From: Aigarchaeota archaeon
GTDB lineage: Archaea > Thermoproteota > Nitrososphaeria_A > Caldarchaeales > Wolframiiraptoraceae
Reading direction: 5' to 3'
Assembly (NCBI GenBank): GCA_025058515.1
Contig: JANXDW010000041.1
Location: 1-33,231, forward strand
Length of the DNA: 33,231 nt
Part shown: positions 18,455 to 30,727 of the stretch, piece after piece
Position numbering within the stretch: the stretch's first letter is position 1
How the letters are laid out: each line of letters begins with the position of its first letter
Program-made: the position numbers and the translations under genes
Notes under the pieces: model-generated
Seen by the model: the letters and a program-made list of their open reading frames with translations, nothing else
Told to the model about the DNA's origin: nothing
Database searches by the model: none

Positions 18455-18618
18455 CGAAAACTTCTACATCATAACAATATAAAAGTTTTACAGATGAAGT
18501 ATCATACTAGCATGAAAGATGTGTTAACATCTGAATAGGTGCTTAAAGTTCAATTAACTCAAAGAAGAAAATCTATTCTAGAATCTGATCCTCGACATAA
18601 TTAAGATAATGGAGTTAA
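18455..18618. other. Intergenic stretch between the thioredoxin gene and the tRNA
   Basis: 164 bases without a plausible gene. It holds the TATA box of the thioredoxin operon and a small perfect hairpin, GATGT-GTTA-ACATC, near 18519-18532. A purine-rich stretch around 18565-18580 reads as a T-rich tract on the minus strand and may end the tRNA transcript. Confidence 0.4.
18477..18483 (-). promoter_or_regulatory. TATA box of the thioredoxin-VKOR operon
   Basis: TTTATAT on the minus strand, its centre 26 bases from the ATG at 18454, implying a leaderless two-gene mRNA. Confidence 0.6.
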
Positions 18619-18713
18619 AGCCCCGGGCGGGGTTTGAACCCGCGACCCCTGGCTCTTCGTAAACTTATATTGATCTACCAAGCCAGTGCTCTACCAGGCT
18701 GAGCTACCGGGGC
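18619..18713 (-). tRNA. tRNA-Thr (anticodon GGT) with an intron in the anticodon loop
   Basis: The minus strand folds into a complete tRNA: acceptor GCCCCGG/CCGGGGC, D arm GCTC/GAGC, anticodon stem CTGGC/GCCAG, five-base variable loop GGGTC, T arm GCGGG-TTCAAAC-CCCGC. Every stem is Watson-Crick paired. The loop between the anticodon stem halves is 28 bases, so about 21 must be removed. Cutting after position 37 leaves the loop TTGGTAA with anticodon GGT. The discriminator base is T73, usual for archaeal tRNA-Thr. CCA is not encoded. A cut after loop base 2 or 3 would instead give TTGAAGA (GAA, Phe), but T73 argues against that, since Phe has A73. The mature length is 74 bases. Confidence 0.9.
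18655..18675 (-). other. Probable 21-nt tRNA intron
   Basis: Placed between positions 37 and 38 by the loop-length argument. The expected bulge-helix-bulge is imperfect: three of four central pairs form with ACGA before the 3' cut. A competing six-pair helix (GTAGAT with GTTTAC) crosses the 5' junction. The exact boundaries are therefore less sure than the presence of an intron. Confidence 0.6.
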
Positions 18714-18888
18714 CAATCCTACCTTAGATTGTCTTCTAAGAAGTTAATGAACATATCTCAATTCTTTTATGAAGCATTTAGAAGATATTTTATCTAGAAT
18801 AATATTATTTTAACTTTGTTTTAATTGAGAGTGTTAAGAGGGTAGATTTATTTCTCTGAGATTGGCTTCTATTGTATGAATGTGTTGA
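18714..18888. other. AT-rich intergenic stretch between the tRNA and ggt
   Basis: 175 bases with no credible gene. It must hold the tRNA promoter and the 3' end of the ggt transcript, both on the minus strand. No standard TATA element or T-tract terminator stands out. Confidence 0.4.
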
Positions 18889-29686: not shown

Positions 29687-29778
29687 CAATAAAATTATCT
29701 AGCTAGAAGAATAAATCTTTAATTCATTCACTAGTATGAGTAATGTAAATCAATTGAGTATATCTTCCAATCTACATC

Positions 29779-29786
29779 TTAAAATA
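29779..29786 (+). promoter_or_regulatory. TATA box of the C/D box sRNA
   Basis: TTAAAATA with its centre about 27 bases before 29810, exactly where the sRNA terminal stem begins. A second box, TTTATATG (29802-29809), could start a transcript near 29832 for the downstream genes. Confidence 0.5.
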
Positions 29787-29810
29787 TTGGATTAGCGTTT
29801 ATTTATATGC

Positions 29811-29875
29811 CCTCAAGATGATGAAAATGACCTGCACAGATTGTGGTGAAGATCATGCACCTCACTGACTTGGGG
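29811..29875 (+). ncRNA. C/D box sRNA (2'-O-methylation guide)
   Basis: All parts of an archaeal C/D guide RNA are present: terminal stem CCTCAAG (29811-29817) with CTTGGGG (29869-29875), seven pairs with one G-U; C box ATGATGA (29818-29824); 12-nt guide; D' box CAGA (29837-29840, variant); 5-nt spacer; C' box GTGAAGA (29846-29852, one change); second 12-nt guide TCATGCACCTCA; D box CTGA (29865-29868). Both guides are exactly 12 nt, the archaeal norm. The D-guide complement contains GAGGUGCAUG, which from memory matches archaeal 16S rRNA in helix 34 near the decoding base C1054. The rule of the fifth base from D would modify the G equivalent to about E. coli 1051. The D' guide target was not recognised. 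It lies 22 bases before a protein gene, on the same strand. Confidence 0.85.
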
Positions 29876-29896
29876 GATACTTTTAGGTGAATAATC

Positions 29897-30163
29897 TTGA
29901 AGATAGAGTTGGTCGGTCCACTGAGAAGGATAATGGATGTCTCAGAGATTGAGTTGGAGGTAAATGAGAGAACGATGCTTGTTGAAGTATTGAATAGATT
30001 ACCTGAAAAAGTTAAGAAGCATGTTCTAAAGTCAGTAGATACCGTGTCTCCGCAGATAATGATATTAGTTAATGGTGTAGAAGTAAAAAGTATTGGGATA
30101 GAGAAAGTATACGTCGAAGATAAAGATAAGGTAGTCTTGATACCGATAATTCATGGAGGATAG
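29897..30163 (+). CDS. MoaD/ThiS/SAMP-like ubiquitin-fold protein
   Basis: An 88-residue beta-grasp protein ending in Gly-Gly (VVLIPIIHGG), the tail that an E1-like enzyme adenylates for sulfur transfer or protein conjugation. It could be the small subunit of molybdopterin synthase, a tRNA-thiolation carrier or a SAMP protein modifier. The sequence LVNGVEV and DKDKVVLIP are typical of the fold. The start is TTG 29897, with AGGTGA six bases before it. Its Gly-Gly codons GGA GGA double as the ribosome site of the next gene. No MoaE or E1 gene is nearby, so the exact role is open. The C/D box sRNA lies directly upstream. Confidence 0.85.
   Translation: MKIELVGPLRRIMDVSEIELEVNERTMLVEVLNRLPEKVKKHVLKSVDTVSPQIMILVNGVEVKSIGIEKVYVEDKDKVVLIPIIHGG
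30155..30160 (+). promoter_or_regulatory. Shine-Dalgarno made of the Gly-Gly codons
   Basis: GGAGGA encodes the C-terminal Gly-Gly of the ubiquitin-like protein and stands six bases before the GTG start of cgi121, coupling the two genes. Confidence 0.75.
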
Positions 30164-30166
30164 ATA

Positions 30167-30727
30167 GTGGAGATAATCCAGTATCAAGATAAGTGGATTG
30201 GTGCTGCAGTATACCGTTCAGTTAAAAAAGAATTTCTAAAAGATGCTACAAGACCTCTTAATGAATTATGTAGTGAGAAAGTAATAATGAATATATTTAA
30301 ATCTGATCCAGTGATCTCGTTGAAACAGATTCATGCTGCAGCTATCTCTTCTCTACTCGCATTCAAGTCTAAGTCAAATATAGCGAAAAACTTGGGAATA
30401 GAGATCTTACTCAGAATTTCATCGGAGACTCAGATAGAGAGAGCTTTAAAGAAGCTTGGTATAGATGAGAGTGCAGAGGAGGCTGGGGTATGCATCATCT
30501 CAGAAGATTATAATGAGCTGGAAGAAGCTAGAGGTATGTTGTCTTTGCGGATAGGTGGAGTTGAGCTAAGTGAAGAAGATCTACATGATAATAATAGAGT
30601 AGTTAGAGCATTAGAGTTCTACAGTATCAAGGATGAAGATTTAAAAGTTATTCAAGCTAAGAATTTGTATGAAGCTGCATTATTCTTGATATTAGAGAAG
30701 ATCGCTACGTTGGATCTCTACAGATAG
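30167..30727 (+). CDS. cgi121: KEOPS complex subunit Cgi121
   Basis: Small subunit of KEOPS, which makes the t6A base of tRNAs that read ANN codons; Cgi121 binds the tRNA 3' end and the Bud32 kinase. The hallmark segment is QIHAAAISSLLAFKSKSN followed by KNLGIEILLRISSETQIERALKKLGI, where archaeal Cgi121 has an alpha-helical HA-type motif and an RQI-like sequence. It has 186 residues, somewhat longer than many archaeal forms (about 150), the extra part being C-terminal helix. The start is GTG 30167, set by the GGAGGA in the preceding gene. The other KEOPS genes (kae1, bud32, pcc1) are not in the window. Coupling to a ubiquitin-like carrier is unusual. Confidence 0.85.
   Translation: MEIIQYQDKWIGAAVYRSVKKEFLKDATRPLNELCSEKVIMNIFKSDPVISLKQIHAAAISSLLAFKSKSNIAKNLGIEILLRISSETQIERALKKLGIDESAEEAGVCIISEDYNELEEARGMLSLRIGGVELSEEDLHDNNRVVRALEFYSIKDEDLKVIQAKNLYEAALFLILEKIATLDLYR

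What the first reader, a model, noticed from the sequence alone, without database searches (positions are those of the whole stretch)
29811..29875. C/D box sRNA with a predicted target beside the ribosomal decoding site
Both guides have the archaeal 12-nt length, the boxes are in order, and a seven-pair terminal stem closes the RNA. The D guide is complementary to GAGGUGCAUG, which from memory is archaeal 16S helix 34 next to C1054; the modified base would be the G at about E. coli 1051. Gene finders for proteins will miss it.
Basis: partly seen in the sequence, partly recalled or inferred. Interest (0 to 1): 0.6.

Follow-up and report, generated by a model that had tools for sequence, protein, structure and literature searches.

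The report
Archaeal guide RNA for ribosomal helix 34
This is a gene for a small archaeal RNA whose two guide sequences pair with the two opposite strands of one helix beside the ribosome's decoding site; it belongs to a well-known class of RNA, but it was not in the RNA family library, it is widely conserved, and its two predicted methylation sites match two sites that eukaryotes methylate with two separate guide RNAs.

Summary
The small RNA is real by every computational test available. It spans 29810-29876 (+), with boxes C, D', C' and D in order, two 12-nt guides and an 8-pair terminal stem. It is the only C/D-type hit in the window; none appeared in 400 random windows. The same two-guide RNA recurs across the phylum: 135 of 398 genomes match the model at E <= 0.01. 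It sits upstream of the same urm1-like gene in relatives, and guide changes track 16S changes at 1201 and 1203. By guide register, G1051 and G1197 correspond to eukaryotic Gm1271/Gm1328 (snR40/U32A) and Gm1428/Gm1490 (snR56/U25). It is a new family of a known kind: a dual-guide archaeal C/D box sRNA that probably methylates and transiently holds apart both strands of the decoding helix. Expression and methylation are untested.

The parts
29778..29786 (+). TATA-like promoter element (CTTAAAATA), about 27 nt upstream of the RNA's 5' end
   Evidence: A similar (T)TAAAATA element lies at the same place in G001, G003 and G004, and a variant (TTAATATA) in G002, in otherwise diverged flanks; inference from sequence only
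29810..29876 (+). C/D box sRNA, whole predicted RNA (67 nt)
29810..29817 (+). 5' arm of terminal stem CCCUCAAG
   Evidence: 8 pairs with 29869-29876; stem kept with changed sequence in relatives; mean stem length 3.44 against at most 2.64 for re-paired flanks
29818..29824 (+). box C (AUGAUGA)
   Evidence: UGAUG core invariant in 14 homologues
29825..29836 (+). D' guide AAAUGACCUGCA, target 16S G1197 (helix 34, 3' strand)
   Evidence: 8 contiguous pairs with own 16S; covariation at 1201 and 1203 in relatives
29837..29840 (+). box D' (CAGA, one change from CUGA)
   Evidence: CUGA in many wider relatives
29846..29852 (+). box C' (GUGAAGA)
   Evidence: RUGARGA in most homologues
29853..29864 (+). 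D guide UCAUGCACCUCA, target 16S G1051 (helix 34, 5' strand)
   Evidence: 10 Watson-Crick plus 1 G-U pairs with own 16S
29865..29868 (+). box D (CUGA)
   Evidence: invariant in the 14 homologues
29869..29876 (+). 3' arm of terminal stem CUUGGGGG
29897..30163 (+). urm1/ThiS-like gene just downstream (syntenic neighbour, possibly co-transcribed)
   Evidence: Pfam Urm1 7.7e-8; found beside the sRNA in 13 of the 14 loci tested
30167..30727 (+). CGI-121-like gene, second syntenic neighbour
   Evidence: Pfam CGI-121 4.1e-11; synteny

Best explanation
It is an archaeal dual-guide C/D box sRNA. With L7Ae, Nop5 and fibrillarin it would form an sRNP whose D guide pairs with 16S 1047-1057 and whose D' guide pairs with 16S 1194-1201, the two strands of helix 34, and would direct 2'-O-methylation of G1051 and G1197. 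Because each guide occupies one strand, the sRNP should also keep helix 34 open and its strands, about 145 nt apart in sequence, close together until it is released, acting as a folding chaperone of the 30S head. Shown here by sequence: boxes, guides, complementarity to own rRNA, phylum-wide conservation, synteny, and guide-target covariation for the D' guide. Inferred: expression, sRNP assembly, methylation, chaperone role.
For: Boxes and stem, with zero chance hits in 400 random windows. Both guides fall on opposite strands of helix 34 in the organism's own 16S. The D guide's score is reached by 16 of 1500 shuffles anywhere in rRNA; the D' guide's score in helix 34's 3' strand is reached by 242 of 200000 shuffles. 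The model matches 135 of 398 phylum genomes, and a strict pattern finds 31 stretches in the named genome collection, all with archaeal titles. In 55 distinct homologues the GACCUG core keeps one register to the D' box, pointing at G1197, while the D guide points at G1051 in 36 and G1050 in 19. Covariation: all 7 family-f2 genomes with a held 16S have A1201G together with guide U to C; 6 of 7 genomes with C1203, in three families, carry guide G, whereas most genomes with U1203 carry guide A. The terminal stem exceeds re-paired flanks. Fibrillarin, Nop5 and eL8/L7Ae genes are present in the genome.
Against: No RNA or methylation data. In this species the D' half is weaker than in most relatives: 8 contiguous pairs, box CAGA, and A opposite A where U-U is usual; alone, its rRNA match is not significant (270 of 1500 shuffles), and it is below the 9-pair rule of Dennis et al. 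(PMC4644070). One congener (G002, L138) has lost a clear D' box. The f2 covariation may be a single event, and one genome (G026) breaks the pattern. The wider comparison is within one phylum.
Confidence: 0.92

Rival explanations
1. It is a single-guide sRNA in this species: only the D guide (G1051) is active, and the D' half is a decaying remnant of the ancestral dual guide.
For: Degenerate box D' (CAGA), A opposite A at the k-loop position, 8-pair duplex with a mismatch at 1202; G002 has lost a clear D' box while keeping the D half (L138).
Against: The 8-nt D' guide core is identical in the intact family-f1 homologues. Noncanonical D' boxes are common in this family and sit with intact guides across several genera, which is not the pattern of decay.
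Confidence: 0.25
2. The conserved role is mainly to clamp and fold helix 34; the exact methylated base on the 5' strand is secondary.
For: The D guide drifts along one strand (G1051, G1050, and G1048 in family f2 by hand reading) while remaining paired with it. Dennis et al. (PMC4644070) propose such a chaperone role for sRNAs that target both strands of helices 28 and 30.
Against: The D' register never moves (always G1197), which suggests that the methyl group itself is selected at that site.
Confidence: 0.3
3. The stretch is a 5' leader regulatory element (L7Ae-binding k-turn) of the urm1-like gene rather than a guide RNA.
For: It lies about 20 nt upstream of the urm1-like start and is syntenic there. 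L7Ae-dependent translational regulation has been suggested in archaea (PMC5539422, title and abstract only).
Against: Guides covary with 16S. Homologues keep both guides in many families across the phylum; neighbouring genes there were not tested. A TATA-like element sits at the right distance for the RNA's own start.
Confidence: 0.04
4. Chance resemblance in intergenic DNA.
For: The D' match taken alone in one species is not significant.
Against: (0 in 400 windows).
Confidence: 0.01

Closest known systems
Archaeal dual-guide C/D box sRNAs, in particular N. equitans sR15 and sR17 (helices 30 and 28; PMC4644070)
   Same: Same class, boxes and spacing; two guides that sit on the opposite strands of one long-range 16S helix
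   Different: Different helix (34) and guides. Table 3 of that paper, covering seven species, lists no sRNA with this pair of sites as far as its own numbering can be converted
Pyrococcus sR43/sR42 (Rfam RF01128)
   Same: Its consensus AAAGCACCUCCA-CUGA pairs with the same helix 34 5' strand, register G1050
   Different: The second guide is unrelated; no G1197 guide
Yeast snR56 / human U25 (SNORD25), 18S Gm1428/Gm1490
   Same: Same register on the helix 34 3' strand; relative L120 shares GACCUGUACUGA with Rfam snR56 RF01188 (25.3 bits against gathering 54)
   Different: Separate eukaryotic snoRNA without the G1051 guide; below Rfam threshold, so homology of the genes is not shown
Yeast snR40 / human U32A / plant snoR21 (Rfam snoZ221_snoR21b RF00300), 18S Gm1271/Gm1328/Gm1272
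   Same: Guide UCAUGCACC in the same register on the helix 34 5' strand; site equivalences from the table in PMC8817022
   Different: Separate snoRNA; 17.7 bits against gathering 44

Membership tests
archaeal C/D box sRNA | boxes C (RUGAUGA) and D (CUGA) | tested here: met
   perfect at 29818-29824 and 29865-29868
archaeal C/D box sRNA | internal C' and D' boxes | tested here: met
   GUGAAGA and CAGA, one change each; CUGA in many wider relatives
archaeal C/D box sRNA | about 12 nt between boxes on each side | tested here: met
   12 and 12 nt
archaeal C/D box sRNA | terminal stem | tested here: met
   8 pairs; mean in 55 homologues 3.44 against at most 2.64 in 200 re-pairings
archaeal C/D box sRNA | D guide complementary to RNA target with a Watson-Crick pair at the fifth base | tested here: met
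   10 Watson-Crick plus 1 G-U, C opposite G1051
archaeal C/D box sRNA | D' guide complementary to RNA target | tested here: met
   8 contiguous pairs, C opposite G1197; under the usual 9-pair rule in this species, but covariation in relatives
archaeal C/D box sRNA | partner proteins L7Ae, Nop5 and fibrillarin encoded | tested here: met
archaeal C/D box sRNA | stable RNA bound by these proteins and 2'-O-methylated targets | not testable with these tools
   no RNA data held
any described Rfam family | score at or above the gathering threshold | tested here: not met
   only a tRNA in the window; best C/D match sR17 22.9 against 36; 18 relatives none
eukaryotic snR56/U25 or snR40/U32 lineage | same guide and target register | tested here: met
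   this is register only, homology by descent was not tested and membership is not claimed

The most novel reading that the evidence does not exclude
A single archaeal sRNA guiding both G1051 and G1197 of helix 34 is an old design shared with, or ancestral to, the pair of eukaryotic snoRNAs (snR40/U32A and snR56/U25) that methylate the same two positions, so the decoding-helix methyl pair would predate eukaryotes and its guides were later split onto two RNAs.
Probability: 0.3. Interest if true: 0.65.

Novelty: new member of a known kind. Interest (0 to 1): 0.42.

Why it matters
Few rRNA methylation sites are shared by distant archaea, and guide drift is fast. Here one guide register (G1197) is kept across much of a phylum, beside a second guide for the opposite strand of the same decoding helix, and both sites coincide with eukaryotic ones. 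That gives a clear case for testing whether archaeal and eukaryotic decoding-site methylation is inherited, and whether dual guides act as folding clamps.

Tried and rejected
Chance box pattern: rejected. Match to a described Rfam RNA: none at threshold. Split or intron-bearing 16S suspected from matches on two contigs: rejected, the contig ends simply overlap. Alternative C' box GUGGUGA at 29843: rejected because GUGAAGA at 29846 gives 12-nt guides and matches relatives. In one search the row for G007 picked a wrong stretch; its true guide, TGACCTGCA, is (L045). Literature searches for this helix 34 pair in archaea found nothing in the held library; supplementary tables of Dennis et al. could not be read, so prior prediction of single sites there is not excluded. 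A count on a hand-written structure failed for length and was replaced.

Full report
Observation. The stretch 29810-29876 (+) reads as a complete archaeal C/D box sRNA: stem CCCUCAAG, box C AUGAUGA, 12-nt guide AAAUGACCUGCA, box D' CAGA, 5-nt loop, box C' GUGAAGA, 12-nt guide UCAUGCACCUCA, box D CUGA, stem CUUGGGGG. A scan for the box pattern found only this place in the window, and none in 400 random windows with the same dinucleotide make-up. Rfam has no family that matches at its threshold.

Target of the D guide. The organism's own 16S lies on two overlapping contigs. The D guide pairs with GGAGGUGCAUGG there by ten Watson-Crick pairs and one G-U. Aligned with E. coli K-12 16S, the base opposite the fifth guide nucleotide is position 1051, in helix 34, three bases before C1054. 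Of 1500 shuffled guides, 16 do as well anywhere in the rRNA.

It pairs by eight contiguous pairs with GGCAGGUCAGUA of 16S and points at position 1197, on the other strand of helix 34. Over the whole rRNA such a match is not rare (270 of 1500 shuffles), but in the 21-nt 3' strand of helix 34 it is (242 of 200000). Conservation and covariation then make the case.

Conservation. Relatives in the same genus and many in the family carry it. A sequence model made from 14 homologues matches 135 of 398 genomes of the phylum at E <= 0.01; the weakest of these matches are partial. A strict pattern over 84,980 named genomes gave 31 stretches, all with archaeal titles: Candidatus Geocrenenecus, Wolframiiraptor, Terraquivivens, Benthortus, Brockarchaeota, Marsarchaeota and others. 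Two same-genus matches (G003 and G004) have the contig lengths of the Ca. Geocrenenecus records, so the window most likely comes from that genus (inference). In 55 distinct homologues the GACCUG core keeps the register to the D' box that points at G1197. The D guide points at G1051 in 36 and at G1050 in 19; most members of family f2 have CAUGUCUCCUCU, which by hand reads as G1048. In the window's family the RNA sits just upstream of an urm1-like gene followed by a CGI-121-like gene. A TATA-like element lies about 27 nt upstream of the 5' end in four of the five congeners, with a variant in the fifth.

Covariation. In family f2 the 16S has G instead of A at 1201, and all seven f2 genomes with a held 16S have C instead of U in the guide at the pairing place. 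Of the other genomes all but one (G026) keep U, once the misread row for G007 is corrected. At 1203, six of seven genomes with C have guide G, in three families, while most genomes with U have guide A. Such changes are expected if guide and 16S pair. The terminal stem is also kept with changed sequence: the mean longest stem is 3.44 pairs against at most 2.64 in 200 re-pairings of flanks. In several genera (for example L020, L119, L128) the short D'-C' loop is replaced by a hairpin stem whose sequence differs between lineages.

Mechanism. Fibrillarin, Nop5 and eL8/L7Ae are encoded. By the established rule (methylation opposite the fifth base before box D or D'; PMC4644070) the sRNP would methylate G1051 and G1197. 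Because each guide covers one strand of the same helix, helix 34 cannot fully close while the sRNP is bound, so a clamp or chaperone role follows, like that proposed for N. equitans sR15 and sR17 on helices 30 and 28 (PMC4644070). The first part is well supported by sequence; the second is inference. The D' half may be weak in this species: box CAGA, A opposite A at the k-loop position, a mismatch at 1202, and loss of a clear D' box in congener G002 (L138).

Comparison with the known. Rfam alignments show the D guide in the same register as plant snoZ221/snoR21b, and the D' guide of relative L120 in the same register as yeast snR56. The table in PMC8817022 equates AtsnoR21 Gm1272 with yeast snR40 Gm1271 and human Gm1328, and snR56 Gm1428 with human U25 Gm1490. 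PMC5464676 places Gm1271 in helix 34, and PMC8351944 counts three helix 34 sites in yeast and human. So one archaeal RNA covers two sites that eukaryotes treat with two snoRNAs. All these Rfam scores are below threshold; they show the same register, not descent. Pyrococcus sR43 (RF01128) has a guide for the same 5' strand at G1050. No paper in the held library was found to describe this pair in archaea, but the site tables of Dennis et al. could not be opened.

Verdict. The eukaryotic coincidence of both sites and the fixed G1197 guide raise it above routine annotation, but the class and the mechanism are well known.

Noticed in passing
18618-18714 (-): tRNA-Thr(GGU) gene 97 nt long, longer than usual and probably holding a short intron.
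   Followed up: no
29837-29852 and homologues: At the k-loop position where U-U is usual (C' base 5, D' base 2), genera of this family have A/A (Geocrenenecus), G/G (Wolframiiraptor and others) or A/C (most Terraquivivens), as if the two bases change together.
   Followed up: partly
L138 (G002): A congener has lost a clear D' box and the exact D' guide while keeping the D half.
   Followed up: partly
L192 (G032:C13) and L182 (G032:C1): A second copy of the sRNA in one genome with a damaged C box; a duplicate or strain mixture.
   Followed up: no
L141-L144 and L139, L140, L157, L158: Genomes that match only the D' half or only the D half of the model, suggesting that the two guides are exchanged as modules between sRNAs.
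   Followed up: partly
L004-L006 (own 23S, contig C2): The stretch between 23S model positions 1423 and 2143 takes 1517 bases, about 800 more than expected, so the 23S gene probably carries an insertion such as an intron.
   Followed up: no
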